Part shown: positions 27,399 to 43,167 of the stretch, in pieces
Layout of the letters: every line of letters begins with the position of its first letter
Numbering within the stretch: position 1 is the first letter of the stretch
Source: Clostridia bacterium
GTDB lineage: Bacteria; Bacillota; DTU025
Reading direction: 5' to 3'
Assembly: GCA_034926675.1 (NCBI GenBank)
Contig: JAYFQW010000042.1
Span: 1 to 64,000, forward strand
DNA length: 64,000 nucleotides
Position numbers and translations under genes: made by a program
The notes under the pieces: generated by a model
Databases searched by the model: none
Told to the model about the DNA's origin: nothing
What the model saw: only the letters and a program-made list of their open reading frames with translations

Positions 27399-27559
27399 CA
27401 TGCAACGGTCCGTGCCTGTCGCACCAACCTTGCCTTCCTATCGGGGACAAAGTCAGTTTCCCGGAGGTTTTGGGGTTCTTGTGACCTGAGCGGTTCCGGG
27501 TCCGAAGCTGAGAACTCGCCTTGTGCTATGATGTATGCAGATGCACAGGGGGGACGCCG

Positions 27560-28309
27560 ATGCACAGGATCATGATAGTCGAAGACGATGACAAGATTGC
27601 CGACATCCTCTCGAGCTATCTAGAGAGGCATGGTTACGAGCCCGTCAGGCCGTCAAGCTTCCGCGACATCAAATCGGAGTTCCTTGCCATCTGCCCCTGC
27701 CTAGTGCTCCTAGACATCAACCTTCCTTATATGGACGGCTTCTACTGGTGCCGGCAGATACGTACCGTATCGAACGCGCCGGTGATCTTCATCTCCGCCC
27801 GCTCAGGCGACATGGATCAAGTCCTCGCTCTCGATAACGGCGGCGACGACTATATCACCAAACCACTCTCCATTGATGTCGTGATAGCCAAGGTTCGCGC
27901 CGCGCTCAGGCGAGCTTACGGCGAATACTCCGCTCAGGCCGAGTCCGACCCAGATGTATACGAAATCGAAGGACTCTATCTGTATCGCGGCAAGAGCGTG
28001 GTGGAGTGGCAAGGTGCGCAGGTGTTCCTAACGCCCAAAGAGTTCCGATTGCTGGACCTGCTGGCGCGCCGATTGGGGCAAATCGTTCCCCGCGACCGCC
28101 TACTCGAAGCCCTCTGGGACGATGTGGAGTTCGTAGACGACAACACCCTCACTGTGAACGTCACGCGAGTGAGGCACAAGCTCCAGACGATTGGCGTGAC
28201 TGACGCCATCGGAACCATCCGCGGCAAGGGATACAAACTCGCACCTGCATGGAACGCTGGGCATTATAGCCCCGGCCGATGCGAGGGCGGGAACGAGGGA
28301 TCCGTATGA
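27560..28309 (+). CDS. bceR: BceR-type response regulator (OmpR family)
   Basis: A 249-residue regulator: receiver (VEDDDKI; phospho-acceptor in LVLLDINLPYMDG; ISARSG; ITKPL) and an OmpR-type winged helix (LTPKEFRLLDLLARRLGQIV, NTLTVNVTRVRHKL, TIRGKGYKL). In the Bce system it switches on the adjacent ABC transporter in response to peptide antibiotics. The ATG at 27560 follows AGGGGGGA. The stop overlaps the kinase start (ATGA). The symbol is by family resemblance. Confidence 0.88.
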   Translation: MHRIMIVEDDDKIADILSSYLERHGYEPVRPSSFRDIKSEFLAICPCLVLLDINLPYMDGFYWCRQIRTVSNAPVIFISARSGDMDQVLALDNGGDDYITKPLSIDVVIAKVRAALRRAYGEYSAQAESDPDVYEIEGLYLYRGKSVVEWQGAQVFLTPKEFRLLDLLARRLGQIVPRDRLLEALWDDVEFVDDNTLTVNVTRVRHKLQTIGVTDAIGTIRGKGYKLAPAWNAGHYSPGRCEGGNEGSV

Positions 28310-29451
28310 GTATCCTCGATTACCTGGGGAGCCGAGCCACATTCATCATCTTCCACCTGCTCGCAGGGGCGCTGGGCATCGCCGTCATCCAGTTGGACCT
28401 GCTTCGGACAGGCGAACGCGGGCTCACCCCCGGTTCGGCAGCGTACATCGTGGTGCTCCACACAGCAGCGCTCATCGTCGCTCTGGCCATCGACTACTCT
28501 CGGCAGCACGCATTCTTCCGCCGCGCCCGGGCGATCGCAGCCGGGCCCGACCCCCTGGCCCACGTGCCATCCCTCCCTATCGCCAGCACCGCCGAACAGC
28601 GTGTCCTATCACAGCTGGCAAATGCAGCCTACACGTCCCACACCGCAGAGATCCTGAGGCGCGAGGAGCAGTCGCAGATGCACATCGATTTCACTAACCG
28701 ATGGGTCCACGCCATGAAGACCCCGGTCTCAGTTATAGACCTCCTCGTCCAGCAGTCGAGGGAGGTCTGGTCTGTGGATGAAGCCCTGACGCTTCTCGAC
28801 AGCATTCAGGAGGAGAATGAGAAGATCGCCCACGCCCTCGAAACGATGCTGGGCATGGCCCGGCAGGAGCGGTTCTCCCTGGACCTCCTGCCCGAGCAGG
28901 TAGACCTGACTGAAGTCGCGCGCAACGTGGTGAACAAGCACAGAAAGGAATTCATCAGGTACTCCATCTACCCGGTTGTCGAGTGCCATGCCCCCAACTC
29001 CATCGTGGAGACAGACGAAAAGTGGATCACATTCGTCGTCGATCAGCTCGTGTCAAATGCGATTAAGTACACTCGGGTAAACCGGCATGTAGCTGCGATT
29101 GACGATTGCGTCCCCGAAAGCGGCAGGCGAGTTCAAATTCTGATCGATGAGCCCCCGATCGATGCTCGTGCCCGGATCGCCATGCTCCCGCCGGCTGTGA
29201 CGCTGACAGTTCGTGATCACGGCATCGGAATCCCCGCGCAGGATCTTCCGAGGATCTTCGACCCCTTCTTCACCGGCGAAAATGGGCGCGTCGTGCCCGA
29301 GTCAACCGGCATGGGCCTCTTCCTAGTCCGAAGGATATGCGCCGATCTCGGCCACACCGTCACCGCCCAGTCCCAGCCGGGGCAGGGCGCCGCCATGAGC
29401 GTCACATTCTCCACAACCTCCGTCACACACGGCATAACCGCGACTGTGTAG
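28306..29451 (+). CDS. bceS: BceS-type intramembrane-sensing histidine kinase
   Basis: A 381-residue kinase with two N-terminal membrane helices (FIIFHLLAGALGIAVIQ; AYIVVLHTAALIVALAI) and almost no extracellular loop, as in BceS/YvcQ kinases that sense through the transporter. The phospho-acceptor His is in the family motif WVHAMKTPVSVID. ATP-binding boxes are QLVSNAIKYT, RDHGIGI and STGMGLFLVRRI. It overlaps the regulator gene by four bases. Confidence 0.88.
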   Translation: MSILDYLGSRATFIIFHLLAGALGIAVIQLDLLRTGERGLTPGSAAYIVVLHTAALIVALAIDYSRQHAFFRRARAIAAGPDPLAHVPSLPIASTAEQRVLSQLANAAYTSHTAEILRREEQSQMHIDFTNRWVHAMKTPVSVIDLLVQQSREVWSVDEALTLLDSIQEENEKIAHALETMLGMARQERFSLDLLPEQVDLTEVARNVVNKHRKEFIRYSIYPVVECHAPNSIVETDEKWITFVVDQLVSNAIKYTRVNRHVAAIDDCVPESGRRVQILIDEPPIDARARIAMLPPAVTLTVRDHGIGIPAQDLPRIFDPFFTGENGRVVPESTGMGLFLVRRICADLGHTVTAQSQPGQGAAMSVTFSTTSVTHGITATV

Positions 29452-29594
29452 CCGCAGCCGTGCAATCCCAACCTTGCGACAATGTAAGGCTGCACCGGCC
29501 TTCTCGTAAGCCTGCCAAATGGAGACATTCGAGCCAGCCCTGTATACTCATAATCGAAACCTCAACATGCAACACGCAAGGAGGGACTCTGAAG

Positions 29595-30377
29595 ATGGCG
29601 GTCCTCACCGCACACGCTCTCACGAAGGTATACGGCTCGCCCAAGGGCGCGGCGACCACTCGTGCCCTGAACGGTCTGAGCATGGAGGTAGACGCGGGCG
29701 AGTTCGTCGGGGTCATGGGACCATCCGGAAGCGGCAAGACGACTCTGCTCAACGTGCTGGCGACCATCGATGCGCCCACGTCCGGGACTGTAGAGGTGAA
29801 CGGCACATCCCCCGGGAAGCTTCGCGGCGATCAGCTGGCGCTCTTCCGCCGCCGCCAGCTCGGATTCGTGTTCCAGGACTTCAACCTACTCAATACGCTT
29901 TCGGTTCGCGAGAACATCGCGCTCCCGCTGGCTCTGGATAACGTGCGCGCCGACGACATCGACCGCCGGGTTGAACAGGTCGCAGTCCGCCTGGGCATCA
30001 GCCACATACTGGACAAGCGCACCTACGAGATATCCGGCGGTGAACAGCAGCGTGCGGCTATCGGACGGGCCATAGTTCCAAGGCCCGCGATCTTGCTCGC
30101 CGACGAGCCCACCGGCAATCTCGACTCCAAGTCGTCTCACGGGGTCATGCAGGCCTTCCGGGACCTCAACGAAAAGGACGGCGCCACGATCCTGGTGGTC
30201 ACGCATGACCCGTTCGTGGCGAGTTTCTGCCGGAGGATCGTGTTCATCAAAGACGGCAAGGTTTTCTCGGAACTCAGGCGGGGCGCCGACGGTCGCCAGG
30301 CCTTCTTCCAGAAGGTTCTGGACTCTTTGAGCGTACTGGGAGGTGAGTTCAATGACGTTGCTGCGTCTCGCGTATAG
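29595..30377 (+). CDS. bceA: BceA-type ABC transporter ATPase
   Basis: A 260-residue ATPase of the MacB/LolD-like group: Walker A in MGPSGSGKTTLLN, Q-loop in FVFQDFNLL, signature ISGGEQQRAAIGRA, Walker B ILLADEPTGNLDS, H-loop VTHD. The ATG at 29595 follows AAGGAGGGACTCTGAAG. The stop lies 26 bases inside the permease gene. It powers the permease in freeing cell-wall lipid targets from peptide antibiotics such as bacitracin-like compounds (family knowledge). Confidence 0.9.
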   Translation: MAVLTAHALTKVYGSPKGAATTRALNGLSMEVDAGEFVGVMGPSGSGKTTLLNVLATIDAPTSGTVEVNGTSPGKLRGDQLALFRRRQLGFVFQDFNLLNTLSVRENIALPLALDNVRADDIDRRVEQVAVRLGISHILDKRTYEISGGEQQRAAIGRAIVPRPAILLADEPTGNLDSKSSHGVMQAFRDLNEKDGATILVVTHDPFVASFCRRIVFIKDGKVFSELRRGADGRQAFFQKVLDSLSVLGGEFNDVAASRV

Positions 30378-32280
30378 GAACGTTCGGGAGAACCGGCGCA
30401 CCTACTTCGGCTTCCTCGCCAGCAGCGTCTTCGCCGTCGTGGTGTTCTACCTCTTTGCTGCATTTCGGGCCCTGCCGGCGGTGGTCGAAGGCCACTATCC
30501 CGGCGCCCGTAGCGTTGCCTCCGGACTTCAAGTATGCCAGTATCTGATCATAGCGTTCTCAATCTTCTTCACCCTCTATTCGAATTCCGCGTTTGTGAAG
30601 TCGCGCAAGCGGGAACTGGGCGTGCTCGCTCTGCTGGGCGCACAACGCCGGCAGTTGAGCCTGCTTCTGTTCGGCGAGAGCATAATCGTGGGGATCACGT
30701 CCATAGCAGCCGGGCTCGGCTTAGGCGGATTGTTCGTCAGGCTATTCGTGATGGCGATCGATAGGATCCTGATGTCCCCCGAGCCGCTCCCGTTTGTGAT
30801 CCAATTTGGCCCGATATTGACCACAACCTTCACCTACCTGGCATTGTTCGTCGTGATCAGCGCGCTCAATATCGTCTCGATCAACACGAGCCAGGTCATA
30901 CAGCTCGTAAAGGCCCCCGCCAAGCCAAAGACACCGCCCGTCTACTCCCGGCGCCTCGTGGCGCTTGGCATCGCATTCCTAGCATCAGGATACGCCGTGG
31001 CATGGACAGTCTCGGAAGTAGGGGTAGTTGTGGCCTTCCTGCCGGTAACAGCCATTGTGTGCGTTGGGACTCATATCCTCTTCACACAGGCCAGCGTGGC
31101 CGTGCTCCGCCGTCTCCAGCGGCGCAAGTCAGTCTACTACAAGCAGACCAACCTGCTCACCATTTCCGACTTGGTCTTCAAGATGAAGGACAACGCGCGC
31201 ATCCTCGCGCAAGTGGCCATCTTAAGCGCAGTGGTGCTAACCGCTTCAGGGGTGATCTACACTCTCGGCACGGGCCCGGCGGAGGATGCGAAAAATCGCT
31301 ACGCTAGAGCCGTCTCGTTCGTTCTGCCGGCTACTCACGACTCAGTGCGCATTGCCCAACACTTCAGAGACCGCCTGGTCGCGGCCGGAGCGGTGATCAC
31401 AGACTCGGCGATCATGTCGGCAATACAGGTTGAAGTTCCCGACATATCCAAGAAGGCCCCAGGGCTCATCGTGCCGGCGGACGACTACAACCGATGGGCG
31501 CGCGAGACGGGAATGCTTGAGGCCCATCTGAACTATGGGCATGTCGTGCGCATACTCCGGAACCCGGAAAGCCGCACGCGCCCCGATGACGCGGGGCAGA
31601 TTGTCCACGCCATAGCAGGGGCAACCGACCTGGCGTTCGTAACAGACGGGGCAATTTCGGCGCCGCTCGTCAGCGGAATGGGAGATGCGGCATTCCTCCT
31701 GGTGTGCGACAACGGCCGGTTTGCCGAGCTCATGCGGGATCTGCCCGCAAAATGCCAGGAAACCTGGTTCAGCTGCGAACTGTCCAATTGGAAACGAGCC
31801 AGGAAGGCGGAACAGGCCGCAATGGAAGCGTTCCCGCAGGGATATCCAATGGCATACGCGTCCCGCGTCAAGGAATACTCGCAGATGATGGCATCACTCA
31901 ACATGCTAATGCTCGTCGCGATGTTCGTGGCGTTCCTCTTCTTCCTGGCGGCAGGGTCGATGCTGTACTTCAGGTTCTTCCTAGAGATCCAAGAAGACCA
32001 GGCAAGGTACGTCGCCCTCCGTCGGATCGGCCTCTCGTGGCGAGAAATCCGTGGAATCGTGACCCGGGAGATGGCCGTGCTGTTCTTCGCTCCCTGGGTC
32101 GTCGCGTTCGTGCACCAGATGGTCGCGCTGCGTTCGTTCTCGACCGTTACGCCGATGATGCCCATAGAAGTCTGGAAGTATGGCGCGGCCGCCGCCGGGA
32201 TCTTCCTTGCCCTGCAGACAGTCTATTTCCTGCTCGCGCGGGGCGCCTACCTCCAGGAACTGGCCCCGGCTGTGAAGTAA
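30352..32280 (+). CDS. bceB: BceB-type ABC permease (FtsX family)
   Basis: About 642 residues with ten hydrophobic segments in the BceB pattern: TM1, a cluster of three (about 60-170), more helices near 205-250 and 290, a large extracellular domain of about 200 residues (about 320-515), then three C-terminal helices (LNMLMLVAMFVAFLFFLAA; MAVLFFAPWVVAFVHQM; AAAAGIFLALQTVYFLL). The extracellular domain confers drug sensing in this family. The ATG at 30352 follows GGGAGGTGAG. It closes a complete BceRSAB set; no bacteriocin or lantibiotic precursor is nearby. Confidence 0.9.
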   Translation: MTLLRLAYRNVRENRRTYFGFLASSVFAVVVFYLFAAFRALPAVVEGHYPGARSVASGLQVCQYLIIAFSIFFTLYSNSAFVKSRKRELGVLALLGAQRRQLSLLLFGESIIVGITSIAAGLGLGGLFVRLFVMAIDRILMSPEPLPFVIQFGPILTTTFTYLALFVVISALNIVSINTSQVIQLVKAPAKPKTPPVYSRRLVALGIAFLASGYAVAWTVSEVGVVVAFLPVTAIVCVGTHILFTQASVAVLRRLQRRKSVYYKQTNLLTISDLVFKMKDNARILAQVAILSAVVLTASGVIYTLGTGPAEDAKNRYARAVSFVLPATHDSVRIAQHFRDRLVAAGAVITDSAIMSAIQVEVPDISKKAPGLIVPADDYNRWARETGMLEAHLNYGHVVRILRNPESRTRPDDAGQIVHAIAGATDLAFVTDGAISAPLVSGMGDAAFLLVCDNGRFAELMRDLPAKCQETWFSCELSNWKRARKAEQAAMEAFPQGYPMAYASRVKEYSQMMASLNMLMLVAMFVAFLFFLAAGSMLYFRFFLEIQEDQARYVALRRIGLSWREIRGIVTREMAVLFFAPWVVAFVHQMVALRSFSTVTPMMPIEVWKYGAAAAGIFLALQTVYFLLARGAYLQELAPAVK

Positions 32281-32441: not shown

Positions 32442-34847
32442 ATGGTGGACGAGACCATATTTCCAATAGCCAGGTTTCTTCTTACGCGCGACATGCTCGA
32501 AAACGGCACGATCCCGCTGGATGGCGAAGTGGCCCAAGCCCTGTCCCGCAAGCCCAAGGTGATCCGGATGGGGATCGCCACGCCTAACAGCGAGCCCGTA
32601 CCGGCCATCGCCCACTGGTCGGAACGCGTCATACGTTGTCCAAAGCTCAAATCGCTCATCGGGGATACGACACTCTTCGCCGCTGGTGAGGAATGGTTCC
32701 TGCTGTGCGCAGTTCGCAACGTCTCCGGCATATTCGTGATTGTCCTGGCGCGTGAAGCGTGGATATGGTGGAACGAACTTGAGGAAAGAAGCACGTCGAG
32801 ATCTGGCGGACGCGCTGACTTCCGGGATTCGTCCACCGCTCGGCATTCAAGAAGCAGCACGAGAGTGGGAAAAGCCGCGGCGCCGCGGCGCGCCCCTGCG
32901 CCATCGTCCGGGCAGCCGTCAGGGCCCGAGCCGGCGTCAGCACCCGAGTCGCATCCAGCCTCGACCGAGCCGGCGTCAGCGCCCGAGTCGCCTTACGAAC
33001 CGGCGTCAGCATCCGATCCGGCGCCGCCCGACTTCGATGCAGAAGCCTGGAAATTGGTGGACACGCGGCTAATCTCGTCACCCGGCTCGCCTATCACGCT
33101 AGACAACCCGTCGGTGAAGGCGCTTGTCGCGCTGCTTGAATCCGGCGCGTTTGATACGATCGCTCAGTCGCGAGTGCATGGCAAATCGCTGCAACTCTCC
33201 ATGAGCCCTGGCTTCGACCAGCTCCTGTCGCTGGACGCCGTTCGAGGAATCGTACCCTTTGAGTACCAGGTGGGCGTGGTCTGCCAGGTGCTGCAGAGGA
33301 TGCGCGGGCGAGCAATCCTGGCCGACGAAGTCGGTCTGGGCAAGACCATCGAGGCCGGACTCATCCTGATGGAGTATATAATGCGCGGACTGGTACGGCG
33401 TGTGCTGGTGTTGTGTCCTCCGCCTCTGATCTCCCAGTGGCGCGGCGAACTCGAGTCCAAGTTTGGTCTGGGTTTCGTAGCATCCGACGACCCAGCGTTC
33501 GTCTCACAGCCTGATCCGTGGGCGTCAGAAGATCGGATCATCGCGTCCATCGATACCGCTAAGCGTGAGCCGCACTTCTCACGAATCGTCTCTACGCCAT
33601 TTGACATGATCATCGTAGACGAGGCGCACCGCTGCAGGAACAAGAACACGCTGACGTGGAAACTCGTCAATAGCGTCCAGAAAAAGTACATACTGCTCCT
33701 GACGGCAACGCCCGTGCAGAACGACCTCTCCGAGCTGTTCAACATGATAACCCTGGTCCGTCCAGGCCAGCTCGAAACGGCGTCCGAGTTCTCCCGCAAT
33801 TACATCACTCGCGGCGACAGGCTGAAACCCAGGAACGCGGCAGACCTCAGAGACCTCATGCGCGACATCATGATACGCAACAGGCGCGAGACGTGTGGGG
33901 TAGAACTGCCGCGAAGGCGCGCAGAGACGGTCCGAATCGCCCCGGACCCAGACGAAGCCAGTCTCTACGCCCGCATCACCGACGAAGTCCGCGGCCTATT
34001 CAGGGGCATGCATTCGTCCCAAGCCCACGAGCAACTGCGCCTGGCGCTCAAGACGCTCCAGAAGGAGGCCGGCTCCAGCATGCTGGCTGCAGCGCCCACA
34101 CTCGACCGGCTGGCCGACACACTCAGATCCCGCGGCCGGGCCGAGGCGGCCGAGCACCTTGAGGACCTGGCAGATGTCGGAGTATCCATGCGCTCCTCGG
34201 CCAAGGCCGAGGCCCTGATCTCGCTGATCAAGCAGGCCCACACGAAGGTGCTGGTGTTCACCGGCTACCGGGCCACACTGGGTATGCTCGCCCGCGCGAT
34301 GCGAGACAATGGCATATCGCACGCGGTCTTCTCGGGCGATATGTCTAGGCGTGAGCGCGACCGCGCCATAGAGGCCTTCCGTGGCGAAAGCCAGGTCCTG
34401 CTATCGACGGAAACTGGCGGCGAAGGCCGCAACATGCAGTTCTGCAACGTGATGGTCAACTACGACCTCCCGTGGAACCCAATGCGGATCGAGCAGCGCA
34501 TAGGACGCATTCACAGGATAGGCCAGGAGAAAGAGGTCTACGTGTTCAACCTGTCAGTCGATGGAACGCTTGAGTCACACATCTTGGACGTTCTGGACGC
34601 CAAGATCAACATGTTCGAGCTGGTCATAGGCGAACTCGACATGATCCTCGGCAATATCCAGGACGAAGAGGACTTCGAGGACACGGTGATGGACATCTGG
34701 GCTGGCGCCGCATCCGAAGCTGAGGCGGCAGACGGCATGCGTGCGCTGGGCGACCGCCTGGCTCAGGCCAAGGCGGAATACCAGAAGACCCGGGACTACG
34801 AAGACAGGCTTTTCGGAACTGACCTGGGTACAGAACAGGAGCCGTAG
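32442..34847 (+). CDS. RapA/SNF2-type DEAH helicase with novel N-terminal domain
   Basis: An 801-residue superfamily 2 translocase. Residues 1-115 form an unrecognised N-terminal domain. Residues about 118-200 are a low-complexity Pro/Ala/Ser/Glu linker built from PASAPES-like repeats. Helicase motifs follow: I (ILADEVGLGKTIEAGLIL), Ia (VLCPPPLISQWRGEL), II (IIVDEAHRCRN), III (LLTATPVQN), IV (VLVFTGYRATLG), V-VI (STETGGEGRNMQF; RIEQRIGRIHRIGQ). It resembles the helicase core of RapA/HepA, which remodels RNA polymerase, and SNF2 proteins of phage-defence systems. A partner gene follows after 64 bases on the same strand. No methylase or nuclease domain is nearby, so it is not a DISARM locus. 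Confidence 0.88.
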   Translation: MVDETIFPIARFLLTRDMLENGTIPLDGEVAQALSRKPKVIRMGIATPNSEPVPAIAHWSERVIRCPKLKSLIGDTTLFAAGEEWFLLCAVRNVSGIFVIVLAREAWIWWNELEERSTSRSGGRADFRDSSTARHSRSSTRVGKAAAPRRAPAPSSGQPSGPEPASAPESHPASTEPASAPESPYEPASASDPAPPDFDAEAWKLVDTRLISSPGSPITLDNPSVKALVALLESGAFDTIAQSRVHGKSLQLSMSPGFDQLLSLDAVRGIVPFEYQVGVVCQVLQRMRGRAILADEVGLGKTIEAGLILMEYIMRGLVRRVLVLCPPPLISQWRGELESKFGLGFVASDDPAFVSQPDPWASEDRIIASIDTAKREPHFSRIVSTPFDMIIVDEAHRCRNKNTLTWKLVNSVQKKYILLLTATPVQNDLSELFNMITLVRPGQLETASEFSRNYITRGDRLKPRNAADLRDLMRDIMIRNRRETCGVELPRRRAETVRIAPDPDEASLYARITDEVRGLFRGMHSSQAHEQLRLALKTLQKEAGSSMLAAAPTLDRLADTLRSRGRAEAAEHLEDLADVGVSMRSSAKAEALISLIKQAHTKVLVFTGYRATLGMLARAMRDNGISHAVFSGDMSRRERDRAIEAFRGESQVLLSTETGGEGRNMQFCNVMVNYDLPWNPMRIEQRIGRIHRIGQEKEVYVFNLSVDGTLESHILDVLDAKINMFELVIGELDMILGNIQDEEDFEDTVMDIWAGAASEAEAADGMRALGDRLAQAKAEYQKTRDYEDRLFGTDLGTEQEP

Positions 34848-34911
34848 AACGTCGGCGCCGCATAGATCTTCGGACGCGGAGTAATTGGGGTTTGGGTGGT
34901 GCGAGAACGCA

Positions 34912-36045
34912 ATGGCAGCTGAACCCGTGACTACCGATCTCAAAGCTTACCTCATAGATCTGGCCGCAGCCGCCGGCGGCGTCGCTGACGCGGTAGATGA
35001 CGATGTACTTGATCTCGCCCTGCCGGAAGGTGCGGCAACGCGCGCCGGTCTTCCCGAGTTCTTCACCGTAGCGCTCAGCCGCGACGCCGCAGACGAGACA
35101 CAGGGCGCCGAATACGTAACGTATGGAAGCGCGATCCTCGACAAGCTGGTCGGAATGGGGCTCGACACCGGTCGCGCGCTTCGCCTCCGCGCAGCCTTGC
35201 CGCCAACCTCGATGAGGGTGCCCCCCAACCTGATGCAGTGGATACAGGACAGTGTCGTGTTTGAGAAATGCCGCCGCCCGGCCCTGGAGTCGACCGCCGT
35301 TGAACACCACCAACAGGTGGTGTTCAACTTCGTCCTCTCGTACGTGTCCGACGAGAAGCTCACCGATGACGTAATGATAGCAGTGGACCGCCACACGCTG
35401 GGCGACGACACCGGCCTTCTAGACGGCCAAACCAAAGTGTACTTCGCCGATGCAGGCACGGGGCGCGCCGACAACGCCGATGCTGCCGATTCCCAAGAGC
35501 TGTCGTGCCCGCAGGTGATCGTTCATCCATATTCCGAAGCAGCCACGGTGGCAGAGGGAATTCTGGCGGAGAGCGCGCTCCCTCAGTACATTAGCTATCA
35601 ACGTCAGGCTGCGCTCTACTGCCGGCAAGAACTGGCTAAACTGCTCCGCTACTACCATGAGACCATCGAACAGCTGAAATCGCGGGAGGAAACAACGACG
35701 GACGGGGACCGCCGTGAGCGCCTCGCCGCAAAGATCCAGGCTACGCTGGCCGAGAAGGAACGCCGCTCCATGGACCTCATCGAAAGATACCACGTGTACG
35801 CCTCCGCCCGCCTCGACAGCGCTGCCGTGCGGATCATGCCCAAGGTCAGAGCGCGCCTGCAAGTGCAACATATGCGCGAAACCCTGCACCAAGACGTCTT
35901 CTACAACTTGGCCTCAAGCAGCGTAGAGCCCATCGCCTGCCCCATCTGCCACGCTAGAAGCGCAGTCGTGTTCCCCGCATCCGCCATGGCCGACGCCCCC
36001 GAGCATCTCGAGGGCCAGTTCGTATGCCCAAAGCATGTGGTCTAG
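34912..36045 (+). CDS. unrecognised helicase partner with coiled coil and C-terminal zinc-ribbon-like motif
   Basis: About 377 residues with no family I recognise. It has an N-terminal acidic Ala-rich part (1-60), a middle globular part (about 60-230), a predicted helical coiled coil (about 235-325: RQELAKLLRYYHETIEQLKS, LAAKIQATLAEKERRSMDLI), and a C-terminal CPICH...CPKH pair about 30 residues apart that could bind zinc. ATG 34912 is chosen after GGTGGTGCG; an in-frame TTG at 34885 is possible. It lies 64 bases after the SNF2-type helicase, so the two probably act as one complex. The arrangement suggests an adaptor for nucleic acid or RNA polymerase (inference). Confidence 0.7.
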   Translation: MAAEPVTTDLKAYLIDLAAAAGGVADAVDDDVLDLALPEGAATRAGLPEFFTVALSRDAADETQGAEYVTYGSAILDKLVGMGLDTGRALRLRAALPPTSMRVPPNLMQWIQDSVVFEKCRRPALESTAVEHHQQVVFNFVLSYVSDEKLTDDVMIAVDRHTLGDDTGLLDGQTKVYFADAGTGRADNADAADSQELSCPQVIVHPYSEAATVAEGILAESALPQYISYQRQAALYCRQELAKLLRYYHETIEQLKSREETTTDGDRRERLAAKIQATLAEKERRSMDLIERYHVYASARLDSAAVRIMPKVRARLQVQHMRETLHQDVFYNLASSSVEPIACPICHARSAVVFPASAMADAPEHLEGQFVCPKHVV

Positions 36046-38443: not shown

Positions 38444-39502
38444 ATGGTGGTTGTGGTCAAAGTCCAGAGGGGCGCCGCCTGCCCGTACTACCTTGCTGGA
38501 AAAGGCATCAGGCCCGAGGGCGTCTATGTGAGGCAGGGTGCGTCTACCGTTCCGGCGACCGAGAGCGCGATCTTGAAAATGATTAAGGAGACAGGCGGCG
38601 ACAATTGCGAGACTACTCGTTCGCTCAAGCAGAAGCTGACTTTTGCTAGCGCGGAGAAAGCATTCAAGGAAGAGAACATTAAATTCGGCGCGGAACAGAA
38701 GAGAACCCTCGGCATCATCGGGGAGGACGGTGCGTTTTCGAACCTTGGCCTGTTGCTTTCCGACCAATGCATACACACCGTAAAGGTTGCCGTTTTTGAA
38801 GGCAGCGGCAAAACAGTCTTTAGGGACAGAGCGGAGTTCTCGGGTTCGCTGCTAAAGCAGCTCAATGATGTCTATGAGTACATCAATCGGTACAACCGAA
38901 CAAGAGCCGAGTTTTCGGGATTGAAGCGTATTGATATGCGTGATTATCCGCCGGAGGCTGTACGCGAGGCGCTGCAAAACGCGATTGTTCACCGTGACTA
39001 CTCATACAGCGACAGCGTCCTCATCAGCATTCTTGATGACCGCATCGAATTTGTCTCGCTCGGCGGGCTTCCGAAAGGCATAGCGTACAGCGACTTGATG
39101 CTGGGCGTTTCCGTCCTGCGCAATAATCGACTTGCTGATGTGTTCTATCGTCTGCACTTGATAGAGGCGTTCGGCACAGGAATGCCGAAAATCATGGAAT
39201 GCTATCATGGGCAAGAGGCACAGCCGGCTATCGAGATCTCAGACAACGCCTTCAAGATAACGCTGCCCAACACGAATTTCCGGCGCGAGGTTTCCGTTGA
39301 GGATGACAGCCTTTCAGATACTGAGCGCAAAGTCATGGGCTATTTGATAGGACGCGATAGCGCTTCAAGGAAAGAGATAGAAACGGCTATGGGACTCTCG
39401 CAGAGCCGGACCATCCGTGTGCTTAATGCTCTTGCCGACAGACAACTGGTCTCTATACGCGGCAGCGGCAAAAACACAACATGTGCTGTTGTGAGTAGGT
39501 AG
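38444..39502 (+). CDS. AlbA_2/HATPase_c_4 domain regulator, N-terminally truncated
   Basis: A 352-residue protein of the Schlafen-AlbA_2 plus RecG-like ATPase group. The first 35 residues are only the tail of an AlbA_2 domain (RGAACPYYLAGKGIRPEGVY, VRQGAST); about 70 upstream residues of the domain are missing. Then come an HATPase_c_4 domain (DYPPEAVREALQNAIVHRDY, RIEFVSLGGLPKGI, RLHLIEAFGTGMPKIMECY) and a winged helix (SRKEIETAMGLSQSRTIRVL). Its base composition is more A+T-rich than its neighbours, and an IS remnant follows. It may be an inactivated, transferred gene. Confidence 0.75.
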   Translation: MVVVVKVQRGAACPYYLAGKGIRPEGVYVRQGASTVPATESAILKMIKETGGDNCETTRSLKQKLTFASAEKAFKEENIKFGAEQKRTLGIIGEDGAFSNLGLLLSDQCIHTVKVAVFEGSGKTVFRDRAEFSGSLLKQLNDVYEYINRYNRTRAEFSGLKRIDMRDYPPEAVREALQNAIVHRDYSYSDSVLISILDDRIEFVSLGGLPKGIAYSDLMLGVSVLRNNRLADVFYRLHLIEAFGTGMPKIMECYHGQEAQPAIEISDNAFKITLPNTNFRREVSVEDDSLSDTERKVMGYLIGRDSASRKEIETAMGLSQSRTIRVLNALADRQLVSIRGSGKNTTCAVVSR

Positions 39503-40021: not shown

Positions 40022-41743
40022 CTAAAACCGAATGCCGAACAGACCGCCATCCTCAGTTGCATCAGTGAGAGTCACGGGCAGCACATGTTCGCGCACATCA
40101 AAGCCTTCTACGGTCTCCTTGAAGGCATCGTCTTCATTCAAAGTAACGATGTACTGGAAGCCAAGCTCTTCGGCGGTTTCGGCCCCCGCCTTCAGGGCAC
40201 TGATAATCTGTCGCCCGTCCACCCCGTCGAAGAGATGGCTGTCATGTATCAGGAACCCAGGTCCAATGGCGCGTTTGGCGCACAAGCGCATGAGCATCAT
40301 ATCAAAACAGAATATCTGCATGTTCTTGATGCCCTTGCTGCGCGAACCCTGCATCTGAATGCCAAATACAGGACCGTTCGGAGTCGTGTCTACCTGCATG
40401 CTTCCAGCCGACTCGTAAAGCCGCCCGGATGTCTCCTCAAAGGCGAGGATCGCATCAGCAAGGCGTTGCCCTTCCTCAGAGAAATCCCGTCGCAGGCGCA
40501 GGGTCAGACGATTCCGTTCAATCTCCAGCTCGTTTTGGGCGCCCTCGAGCTGCTCCGCAGCCTCGAATCGCTGTCGAAGAGATTCAGCATCCGCTTCAGC
40601 TCTGCCCACTTCGCCTTGCAGCCAGGAGAACTGCTCCAATGCGCCATGGCTGCGAAGGATGACCATAATCTCCGATCTGCGCTGGTCCAGCTTCGCCTTC
40701 TGCTGCTCTCGGGACTCCAAGCGCTGCTTGGCTGAGGAGAGCTCGCCGGAAAGGTAGTCTCGACGATTGCGGATCACCGATTCATGGAAACTGCGGACTT
40801 CGTCGTAACGCCTGACAGCTGTGCCTGGGAGAACGATGCCGGCCTCAGCATATGTCGATTCTAGATCAGCCAAAGAGGGCGGAGCTTCCACATGTAACGC
40901 AATCTCCAAGTCGCGAATCATGGCGATGTCGATCGTGTTGTCATTGGCAAGCTTGTTCAAGTCTCGCGTGATCTCATCTGCTTCTGTTTCCAGTTCCCGA
41001 TATTGCGGCAGCACCCGGAACGATCCCATCTGCGATTTGAGTTTGCCCAAACGCGCTTCGGCCACGGTGAGCTGCGTTCGCAGATCAGACGCTTTGCCGA
41101 TCACGCTACCGAAAGCCCCGGCGCCTGCCGCCTTTTTCAGTTCTGCCAAGGTCTTTTCGCGATCCCGCACCTGTTGCCAGTCGCTCGCTATCTTCCAGTC
41201 AAGACCCAACAGAAACATGAGCGCCACTTGATAATCTCCGACCTGCTGCATCGTCGCCTGTTTTTCAGGCGTGGTGAAAGCGCCACTGATCTGTCGCCGA
41301 ACGAAGTAGGCAAAGAGCGACCGAAAAGTGGGGGCGCGTCCCGCAGCGTCCTGTCCAGCATTCAAGCCAAACACACTCTCTCCAAGTGCCTCAACCCACT
41401 CTTTGATGGTGATTCTGCATATGTCCCCCGCGAAGCCAGAGCCCGATACCTGAAGCTTCGACTTAGCACTGCCGCTGCGCTCCACTGACACCCTCTCGCC
41501 TCCGAGATCGAACTCCATGCCGAAGGACTCGTTGACCAGAGCCTCCGTACGAAAAGGCGAATCCTTCCCGGCATCTGCACCGGTGAGAAAATGCACAATC
41601 TCGATCAGACTTGTCTTGCCCGCCCTGTTACGCGTCTGTTTACTGGTCGCTCCCTGTTCTTTCTGGGCGATGAGTATATTCAGGCCAGGGCGAAAGTCCA
41701 GGCATTTGAAGGTCGGGAGGGTGCTGTAGATTCGCTGAATCAT
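40022..41743 (-). CDS. ABC-3C system ATPase (DUF2326, SMC/RecN-like)
   Basis: A 573-residue SMC-like ABC ATPase. The N-terminal half-domain has a Walker A-like motif in RNRAGKTSLIEIVHFL. Long coiled-coil segments span about residues 190-440 (e.g. SAKQRLESREQQKAKLDQR). The C-terminal half has the signature region (GSRSKGIKNMQIFCFDMMLM) and a Walker B-like GPGFLIHDSHLFDG, with DS where many ABC proteins have DE. DUF2326 proteins are the ATPase of predicted ABC-three-component conflict systems. Its ATG overlaps the stop of the middle component. It probably gates the effector encoded first in the operon in response to invading DNA (family-based inference). Confidence 0.85.
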   Translation of the reverse strand: MIQRIYSTLPTFKCLDFRPGLNILIAQKEQGATSKQTRNRAGKTSLIEIVHFLTGADAGKDSPFRTEALVNESFGMEFDLGGERVSVERSGSAKSKLQVSGSGFAGDICRITIKEWVEALGESVFGLNAGQDAAGRAPTFRSLFAYFVRRQISGAFTTPEKQATMQQVGDYQVALMFLLGLDWKIASDWQQVRDREKTLAELKKAAGAGAFGSVIGKASDLRTQLTVAEARLGKLKSQMGSFRVLPQYRELETEADEITRDLNKLANDNTIDIAMIRDLEIALHVEAPPSLADLESTYAEAGIVLPGTAVRRYDEVRSFHESVIRNRRDYLSGELSSAKQRLESREQQKAKLDQRRSEIMVILRSHGALEQFSWLQGEVGRAEADAESLRQRFEAAEQLEGAQNELEIERNRLTLRLRRDFSEEGQRLADAILAFEETSGRLYESAGSMQVDTTPNGPVFGIQMQGSRSKGIKNMQIFCFDMMLMRLCAKRAIGPGFLIHDSHLFDGVDGRQIISALKAGAETAEELGFQYIVTLNEDDAFKETVEGFDVREHVLPVTLTDATEDGGLFGIRF

Positions 41744-41988
41744 GGTTTCTTCCTCCTAAGAAGGCCTTCATCCAGTTGAACGGCGCCCATGAGAAACAGA
41801 AGATCCAGAGCCAGAATAAACTGGTCGAACTTCAAGGGCGTGGCTGAATGCTGTGCCTCTTCACCTCGGCGATGCAGCTCTTCCCAAACAGCCGAAACAG
41901 TCTTTGGTTGACCTAAGTGCTGCAAAATGCCGACCCCTACGGTGAGAAGAGCACGGTCCTGTGAAAGGTGCTTGGAAGGAAGAATCAT
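41740..41988 (-). CDS. ABC-3C system middle component (MC6-like)
   Basis: An 82-residue small helical protein matching the middle-component pattern: MILPSKHLSQDRALLTVGVG start, LGQPKTVSAVWEEL, and FDQFILALDLLFLMGAVQLD near the C-terminus, like a compact winged helix. In ABC-3C systems such a protein links the ATPase to the effector. Both neighbours overlap it by four bases (ATGA), the sign of tight translational coupling. Confidence 0.82.
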   Translation of the reverse strand: MILPSKHLSQDRALLTVGVGILQHLGQPKTVSAVWEELHRRGEEAQHSATPLKFDQFILALDLLFLMGAVQLDEGLLRRKKP

Positions 41989-42887
41989 GACTCGTCCCCC
42001 CGTGCTTCCTCGAAAATGTCGCAGCTCTCGAAGTAGTAAGCCATCACGGCAAGCACAGCCAGCTGGTGTTCAGGAGTGCCTTGATCATCGCCCCCAACCC
42101 AAACCTGCAGCTCGGCGAAGATCTCATTGGGCGAGAATCTGCCGCGCAACGACTCATACTTGGTCCGAAACGACTGCGCGATCCGCTCTCCGAGGGTCGC
42201 GTCATGCCACCGGCTGTAGAATTCGTCCACCAATGGCGCTTTTGCCATGCCGGCCTTCAACAGAGCCGCAACGCTTTCCGATAGGGCATTAGCTTTGATT
42301 TTGCCCATCGGAACGTCCCTCACCGGTTGCACGAATGGGACAGCCTGCTCCCCGATTCTCTCGAGAACCACCTGTATGTCCCTGAATCCCAGCCTGGCCC
42401 GTGCTTCATCGGTTGGCGCAAATCCGAACCATAACTGGAGATCGTCAGTTGAAAGACGTCGAAAAACCAGGCGGAGCTCCTCCAGTCCCCATGTTTCCAG
42501 CTTGATTCCAGTATTGGCTTTCTCCAATTCCAATATTAGCTTCTGCACATGCGGAGGCAATCCATCTGTTCCATTGTGGACGAATACCCATTCATCGAAG
42601 TACACACCCCAATGAATTCTCGCTCCTTCGAAATCCTCGCGGATCTTGGGAATGGCCACGGACTCCTTCATCTCGTTGGGCGCGTACACCTGAAACAATC
42701 GTCGTTCAGACCTGAGGAACCCATCATTCTTGCGGTCTCCCCGGTTGCCCCACGGACGGCAGGCCATGAAGTCCGCCTTGTAGGCGAAGCCCATCAGTCT
42801 CTCAAAGAAATCCTGAAACGCGTCTCCCCTTGCCCGAAGAAAGGCGATCTCAAACTTATGCTCGTAGAAGGCTTGTTGAAGGTTCAT
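41985..42887 (-). CDS. ABC-3C system effector/C-terminal-domain protein with nuclease-like N-terminus
   Basis: About 300 residues. The N-terminal part (about 1-150) looks like a PD-(D/E)xK-type nuclease fold: FQDFFERLMGFAYKADFMAC, then GNRGDRKNDGFL and RLFQVYAPNE, where Asp and a glutamine-centred strand replace the usual D...ExK; catalytic residues are not certain. The C-terminal part (about 200-300) carries the ABC-3C domain (SRWHDATLGERIAQSFRTKY, NEIFAELQVWVGG, HQLAVLAVMAYYFESCDIFE). The ATG at 42887 is preferred after GGGGGCTCTCG. It is the first gene of the operon and the presumed toxic effector. Confidence 0.8.
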   Translation of the reverse strand: MNLQQAFYEHKFEIAFLRARGDAFQDFFERLMGFAYKADFMACRPWGNRGDRKNDGFLRSERRLFQVYAPNEMKESVAIPKIREDFEGARIHWGVYFDEWVFVHNGTDGLPPHVQKLILELEKANTGIKLETWGLEELRLVFRRLSTDDLQLWFGFAPTDEARARLGFRDIQVVLERIGEQAVPFVQPVRDVPMGKIKANALSESVAALLKAGMAKAPLVDEFYSRWHDATLGERIAQSFRTKYESLRGRFSPNEIFAELQVWVGGDDQGTPEHQLAVLAVMAYYFESCDIFEEARGDES

Positions 42888-43167
42888 ATTCGAGAGCCCC
42901 CGTTCGGCTTGTGCTCGCCTGAGGCACTGGTGGTTGCTTCTTCCCCAATTGGTGATTGTCCTTTGCGCCGCGCAGGATTGGCCTCCAGCATGAGGATTCT
43001 GTGGCAATCTCGATAAACCTTCCCAATTTCCAAAGGTTTTCGTGGTAAACTGCAGGACCGCGGGTCATCGGTCAATAGGTGATGGCAAGAAAGCGATACC
43101 AGGCCTTGCGAGCCGCAGTCGTTACGCGCACCGTTGCCCGGCCGATTTGGATTAACACCGCCCAACC

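What the first reader, a model, noticed from the sequence alone, without database searches (positions are those of the whole stretch)
32442..36045. Two-gene SNF2/RapA-helicase and zinc-ribbon coiled-coil module
A RapA/SNF2-type helicase with an unknown N-terminal domain is followed after 64 bases by a 377-residue protein of no recognised family with a coiled coil and a CPICH...CPKH ending. No methylase, nuclease or DISARM gene is near. The pair could be an RNA-polymerase recycling device or an undescribed nucleic-acid defence system. Mobile remnants lie within 10 kb on both sides.
Basis: partly seen in the sequence, partly recalled or inferred. Interest (0 to 1): 0.65.

Follow-up and report, generated by a model that had tools for sequence, protein, structure and literature searches.

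The report
Split RapA-like motor with partner gene
Two neighbouring genes encode what looks like the E. coli RNA-polymerase-recycling motor RapA cut into two proteins, a relative of the poorly understood yqhH-yqhG pair of Bacillus; it gives the unknown YqhG family its first likely identity and is probably housekeeping rather than antiviral.

Summary
In detail: an 801-aa RapA/SNF2 ATPase (32442-34847) is followed after 64 bases by a 377-aa protein (34912-36045) with no single-sequence family match. The partner is not an orphan. Profile comparison makes it a diverged YqhG (99.9% probability over 294 columns), so the pair is a deep branch of the Bacillus yqhH-yqhG pair. The genes are adjacent, helicase first and often overlapping, at 57 of 59 helicase genes examined in partner-bearing loci (one more is a natural fusion), and helicase clades track partner types. 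The partner's predicted structure has only three significant PDB matches, all E. coli RapA; its N-terminal domain also aligns in sequence with the post-helicase domain of RapA and long DrmD-like helicases. Best reading: a two-subunit RapA, ATPase and C-terminal half on separate chains, remodelling RNA polymerase on DNA. The split is well supported; the RNA-polymerase role is inferred. RapA's own RNA-polymerase-binding N-terminal domain is absent. No DISARM, BREX or methylase genes adjoin it and nothing related was found in phages, so defence is unlikely. All 52 partner-bearing genomes (of 399 searched) carry Spo0A, and B. subtilis yqhH is sigma-F transcribed, hinting at a sporulation link.

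The parts
32442..34847 (+). ATPase subunit: RapA-group SNF2 translocase, 801 aa (window-type sister of YqhH)
   Evidence: ORF; Pfam; NCBIfam/PADLOC best scores DrmD 264, BrxHI 264, RapA 220 bits, all below cut-off where one exists; top PDB fold matches RapA; tree
32442..32771 (+). variable N-terminal domain (residues 1-110), beta-rich, pLDDT about 80; absent from some relatives; not the RapA NTD
   Evidence: AF2 model; comparison with RapA NTD 0.1%; no PDB profile match; absent in L024, L027, L074
32781..33140 (+). low-complexity Pro/Ala/Ser-rich linker (residues 114-233)
   Evidence: sequence; pLDDT below 50
33264..34019 (+). SNF2 ATPase lobe 1 (residues 275-526; Walker A DEVGLGKT, DEAH box)
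   Evidence: Pfam PF00176; invariant motifs
34203..34523 (+). helicase lobe 2 (residues 588-694; motif VI QRIGRIHRIGQ)
   Evidence: Pfam PF00271
34912..36045 (+). partner subunit, 377 aa: diverged YqhG / detached RapA C-terminal half
   Evidence: hhalign with YqhG-type family 99.9%, E 4e-31; AF2 model pLDDT 81.7; Foldseek: only RapA structures at E <= 0.001
34939..35193 (+). RapA_C-like alpha/beta domain of the partner (residues 10-94; family signature EFVTxGSPxLD)
   Evidence: hhalign to E. coli RapA 706-839 and to C-terminal regions of long single-chain helicases, 96.2%; PDB profile match to RapA 755-784, E 0.2
35281..35388 (+). long antiparallel beta strands (residues 124-159)
   Evidence: AF2 model
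35530..35787 (+). long helical hairpin / coiled coil (residues 207-292)
   Evidence: AF2 model, pLDDT over 90
35797..35907 (+). beta hairpin of the partner (residues 296-332)
   Evidence: AF2 model
35938..36036 (+). C-terminal zinc ribbon CPIC...CPKH (residues 343-375); incomplete or missing in some relatives
   Evidence: sequence; alignments: C343/C346 invariant in 21 members; absent in Cytobacillus and Paenibacillus partners

Best explanation
The two genes encode a two-subunit RapA/HepA-type translocase. The first protein is the SNF2 ATPase motor with a clade-specific N-terminal domain on a flexible linker. The second is the equivalent of the C-terminal half of RapA (RapA_C-like domain, beta sheet), with a helical arm and a zinc ribbon, made as a separate chain. 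They most likely form a stable complex that binds RNA polymerase stalled or left on DNA and uses ATP-driven translocation to backtrack or release it. It is a diverged relative of the yqhH-yqhG pair. Shown by sequence and model: the split anatomy, the pairing, and the family link. Inferred: physical complex, RNA-polymerase target, recycling or stalled-complex role.
For: Pairing: 57 of 59 helicase genes in the partner-containing loci (4 of them found through the helicase) have a partner directly downstream, median gap -4 bp; the other two are in one genome, where one is a single-ORF fusion of helicase (9-555) and partner (605-983). Reverse test starting from helicases: 5 of 5 with profile score at least 600 have it. 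Helicase phylogeny tracks partner type: 9 changes against 52 in shuffles. Partner is YqhG-related: 99.9%, E 4e-31 directly, and through a bridging family whose member passes the YqhG cut-off; shuffled controls under 1%. Partner is RapA C-terminus: Foldseek E 1.4e-5 to 5.9e-5, probability 1.00, three RapA entries and nothing else at E <= 0.001; sequence profiles align in the same register. The helicase's top fold matches are also RapA. Literature: YqhH is called HepA and listed among RNA-polymerase-interacting translocases (PMC7385302); Bt YqhH hydrolyses ATP, unwinds DNA, and its knockout is UV-sensitive at 30 min (PMC10054049); yqhG insertions were recovered with mfd and topA (PMC3487849).
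Against: RapA's NTD, one of its main contacts with RNA polymerase (PMC8666675), is absent here. Foldseek TM-scores to RapA are low (0.18-0.20), perhaps because of domain flexibility. RapA_C (PF12137) does not match this genome, and the sequence alignment of the partner to E. coli RapA alone is weak (35-51%). Evidence that YqhH itself binds RNA polymerase is thin: the B. subtilis pull-down reported YwqA among its top hits, not YqhH (PMC3797733). No complex was modelled.
Confidence: 0.62

Rival explanations
1. A two-subunit DNA translocase for DNA repair or chromosome handling (for example in the forespore or after UV damage) that works on DNA-bound proteins in general and does not need RNA polymerase.
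For: Knockout of Bt yqhH is UV-sensitive (PMC10054049); B. subtilis yqhH is transcribed by sigma-F and was chosen as a Tn-seq sporulation-delay hit (PMC4703394); yqhG listed among sporulation genes found in all Bacilli (PMC3533761); all 52 partner-bearing genomes have Spo0A against 345/399 background, P 3e-4 not corrected for kinship; a new N-terminal domain in place of RapA's RNA-polymerase-binding one.
Against: Both chains resemble RapA more than any other solved structure; relatives occur in cyanobacteria and Alphaproteobacteria, which do not sporulate this way. The UV data are inconsistent (the UV-resistant strain carried a yqhH stop; no defect at 60 min), and B. subtilis hepA mutants showed no reduced viability under H2O2 or MMS at the doses used (PMC7385302).
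Confidence: 0.22
2. An antiviral or anti-plasmid defence module, with the helicase acting like DrmD, BrxHI or HmaA on foreign DNA.
For: Helicase scores 200-264 bits against DrmD, BrxHI and HmaA models; relatives on cyanobacterial plasmids; a haloarchaeal relative next to DUF1156 and ATPase genes; PDC-M68 candidate defence pair 4 kb downstream.
Against: Far below the DrmD cut-offs (264 vs 610 and 239 vs 950); no recurrent defence neighbour in the gene-cluster comparison; other branches sit by rsmE-prmA, spoIIP or murC-like genes (named by sequence recognition), and the window pair is followed by the same MFS gene in a relative; no partner relative in viral contigs, phages or viral structures; the haloarchaeal partner is only weakly related (50%).
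Confidence: 0.12
3. Two unrelated genes that happen to lie side by side.
For: Neither gene has a curated assignment that links it to the other; one relative (G001) has a decayed copy.
Against: Conserved adjacency over dozens of families, overlap in 31 of 57 pairs, matching phylogeny and a natural fusion.
Confidence: 0.01

Closest known systems
YqhH-YqhG (Bacillus subtilis HepA/YqhH and Pfam PF11079 YqhG)
   Same: Helicase followed by the partner; full-length profile homology of the partner; RapA-group SNF2 motor
   Different: The window helicase lies in a separate clade from the YqhH-type clade; the partner is below detection by PF11079; it has a zinc ribbon, and the helicase has an N-terminal domain and linker that YqhH-type members lack or replace
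E. coli RapA (HepA), RNA polymerase recycling ATPase
   Same: SNF2 core; the partner corresponds to the C-terminal half in predicted structure and in the RapA_C signature
   Different: Two chains instead of one; RapA's Tudor-like NTD absent; extra helical arm and zinc ribbon on the partner
DISARM DrmD and other long single-chain RapA/DrmD-like helicases
   Same: SNF2 core and a post-helicase domain with the FDxxxA...EFVTxGHPL signature
   Different: Single chain; the window helicase is below DrmD cut-offs; no DISARM genes next to the window pair
B. subtilis YwqA (the other RapA homologue) and HelD
   Same: Translocases linked to RNA-polymerase recycling (PMC10804225, PMC3797733)
   Different: No partner gene described; HelD belongs to superfamily 1; neither was compared directly here

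Membership tests
YqhH-YqhG pair | SNF2 helicase gene with a YqhG-related gene directly next to it | tested here: met
YqhH-YqhG pair | Partner passes the PF11079 gathering score | tested here: not met
   Window partner has no PF11079 match at E <= 1; one of 21 close relatives at E 0.08; bridging type-2 member L078 passes at 43.8 bits. Filed as a remote relative, not a member of PF11079 as defined
YqhH-YqhG pair | Helicase falls in the YqhH-type clade | tested here: not met
   Forms its own clade of 25 rows (SH-aLRT 97) beside the YqhH-type clade
RapA | SNF2 ATPase core with RapA as closest solved fold | tested here: met
RapA | RapA_C-type C-terminal region | tested here: met
   Present on the partner chain by structure and weakly by sequence profile; PF12137 itself has no match in this genome
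RapA | Tudor-like N-terminal domain that contacts RNA polymerase | tested here: not met
   hhalign 0.1%
RapA | NCBIfam RapA equivalog cut-off (576 bits) | tested here: not met
   219.7 bits
RapA | Binds RNA polymerase and recycles it | not testable with these tools
   Needs biochemistry
DISARM (DrmD) | DrmD equivalog cut-off (610 or 950 bits) | tested here: not met
   263.9 and 238.8 bits
DISARM (DrmD) | drmA, drmB, drmC or methylase gene adjacent | tested here: not met
   None among eight neighbours scanned between 30343 and 44293
BREX / Hma / Dpd helicases | Other genes of the system adjacent | tested here: not met
   None found in the neighbours scanned

The most novel reading that the evidence does not exclude
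RapA exists in spore-forming Bacillota as a family of paralogous two-subunit complexes (at least three ATPase-partner pairs, sometimes two per genome and arranged convergently), in which the N-terminal and partner domains vary so that each complex serves a different RNA-polymerase or DNA state, for example in the forespore.
Probability: 0.25. Interest if true: 0.65.

Novelty: new variant of a known kind. Interest (0 to 1): 0.5.

Why it matters
YqhG has been a protein of unknown function that is nonetheless listed among sporulation genes kept by all Bacilli. Recognising it and this wider family as the likely detached C-terminal half of RapA gives it a structural identity, predicts an obligate complex with YqhH, and makes the question of what the second RapA-like system of Bacillus does directly testable by deleting either subunit and looking for the same phenotype. 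It also suggests that published work on YqhH alone may have studied half of an enzyme.

Tried and rejected
DISARM, BREX, Hma and Dpd membership: rejected on cut-offs and neighbours. Phage, plasmid or viral origin of the partner: no tblastn match in phages or plasmids, no relative in viral contigs, no viral fold match at E <= 0.001. The viral helicase hits were at most 44% identical locally, without a partner hit, and were not followed. Identity of the helicase N-terminal domain: no PDB profile match and not the RapA NTD; a resemblance to a B3/EcoRII-N pseudobarrel from the strand order is recollection only, untested. XPR1/SLC53A1 hits of the partner profile (E 0.002-0.02) cover only the coiled-coil stretch and were set aside. 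Partner candidates next to the lone helicases L214, L215 and L217 showed no relation to YqhG.

Full report
Observation. The window encodes an 801-aa SNF2-family helicase at 32442-34847 and, 64 bases on, a 377-aa protein at 34912-36045, both on the + strand. The helicase carries both SNF2 lobes behind an N-terminal domain of about 110 residues and a low-complexity linker. Taken alone, the partner matches nothing significantly in Pfam, PADLOC, NCBIfam, the PDB, or the plasmid and phage records.

Pairing. The partner was sought in related genomes: 9 of 101 genomes by single sequence and 52 of 399 genomes of the phylum by profile. The fetched loci had a RapA-like helicase directly upstream. Over all these loci, 57 of 59 helicase genes had a recognisable partner directly downstream, with median distance -4 bp and overlap in 31 pairs. 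The two exceptions lie in one genome (L089), and one of them is a 987-aa fusion of helicase (9-555) and partner (605-983). Most of these loci were found through the partner, so a reverse test was made. Twenty loci were taken from a helicase search: all five helicases scoring at least 600 had the partner, while more distant helicases were mixed, nine of twenty overall. Four plasmid loci found through the helicase alone (two cyanobacteria, Rhodovastum, Haloarcula) also have a downstream protein of 346-396 aa. Those of the cyanobacteria and Rhodovastum are homologous; the haloarchaeal one is doubtful.

What the partner is. Profile-profile comparison relates the window-type partners to proteins that match Pfam PF11079 (YqhG) at 99.9% probability, E 4e-31, over 294 columns. 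They relate to a bridging type at 100%, E 9.5e-47, and a member of that type passes the YqhG gathering score by itself. Column-shuffled controls gave under 1%. B. subtilis is the one control genome with PF11079. Relation to RapA was tested three ways. (1) The window-type partner profile aligns with E. coli RapA at 706-839, which is weak for a single sequence (35-51%), and picks RapA 755-784 in the PDB at E 0.2; the shared motif is FD.x.A....EFVT.G(S/H)P. (2) It aligns at 96.2% with the post-helicase regions of long single-chain RapA/DrmD-like helicases. (3) The AlphaFold2 model (mean pLDDT 81.7, ten sequences) was searched against the PDB: the only matches at E <= 0.001 are three RapA structures, probability 1.00, over about 320 aligned columns; the next hit is at E 0.77. 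TM-scores are low (0.18-0.20), which flexible joints between domains could explain, so the evidence rests on E-value and exclusivity. The helicase model also has RapA as its top matches. Together the two chains look like RapA split between the motor and its C-terminal half.

What differs from RapA and YqhH. RapA's N-terminal Tudor-like domain, which contacts the RNA polymerase zinc-binding domain (PMC8666675), is not found; the window's N-terminal domain is unrelated, matches no solved structure by profile, and is missing in several relatives. The zinc ribbon is variable and absent in the Cytobacillus and Paenibacillus copies. In the helicase tree, window-type helicases form one clade (25 rows, SH-aLRT 97) separate from the YqhH-type and bridging types, and partner type follows helicase clade (9 changes, shuffled mean 52). 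The tree is a quick one with several long branches, so deep order is unsure. Some genomes carry two pairs, arranged convergently.

Context and function. Gene neighbourhoods show no recurrent defence gene. Around window-type pairs the neighbours vary: two-component genes and a flagellin-like gene in a few related genomes, and the same MFS gene downstream in G005. YqhG-type pairs lie by genes recognisable as rsmE and prmA, bridging-type pairs by spoIIP- and murC-like genes (names by sequence recognition, not by a family search). All 52 partner-bearing genomes have Spo0A (expected 45, hypergeometric P 3e-4, not corrected for kinship). In B. subtilis yqhH is transcribed by sigma-F and was picked as a Tn-seq sporulation-delay hit; seven of the eight mutants tested were delayed, but the text does not say which one was not (PMC4703394). 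yqhG is listed among sporulation genes of all Bacilli (PMC3533761). YqhH is also called HepA and listed among RNA-polymerase-interacting translocases (PMC7385302), although a B. subtilis pull-down reported YwqA, not YqhH (PMC3797733). Bt YqhH has ATPase and unwinding activity and its loss lowers UV survival at 30 min, although the UV-selected strain itself carried a yqhH stop codon (PMC10054049). yqhG insertions were recovered in an eDNA-release screen together with mfd and topA (PMC3487849). No paper found in the searched library connects YqhG with RapA.

Verdict. A two-subunit RapA-type translocase and a remote branch of the yqhH-yqhG family. The split anatomy and near-obligate pairing are well supported; action on RNA polymerase is the most likely function (about 0.6), with general DNA translocation in repair or sporulation next (0.22) and defence less likely (0.12). 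Part of the family was already catalogued as YqhG of unknown function; the new part is the deep branch and the identification of the partner as RapA's detached C-terminal half.

Noticed in passing
window 40022-43007 (-): Candidate defence pair PDC-M68 (PADLOC) made of a DUF2326/CTD10 ATPase-like protein and a CTD10 protein of the ABC-three-component type.
   Followed up: partly
window 27521-32280 (+): Response regulator, histidine kinase, ABC ATPase and FtsX-type permease directly upstream, arranged like a Bce antimicrobial-peptide sensing and export module (the Bce comparison is recollection).
   Followed up: partly
window 38444-39502 (+): Protein with a RecG-like/HATPase_c_4 C-terminal domain and a weak match to short-Argonaute-associated models; possibly a truncated gene.
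   Followed up: no
L021:124-3410 (G001): Apparently decaying copy of the pair: helicase start region in a different frame and partner with an internal in-frame loss (216 aa).
   Followed up: partly
L082, L083, L086, L089: Two helicase-partner pairs, or what look like pairs, facing each other; in L089 one pair is fused into a single 987-aa ORF.
   Followed up: partly
L106:5971-8911: Haloarchaeal plasmid: RapA-like helicase with a 396-aa coiled-coil, zinc-ribbon protein near DUF1156 and AAA ATPase genes, possibly an Hma-like system with a split helicase.
   Followed up: partly
L210, L212-L217, L220, L221, L227, L228: Lone RapA-like helicases nested with the YqhH-type clade but without a recognisable partner; possible loss or replacement of the partner.
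   Followed up: no
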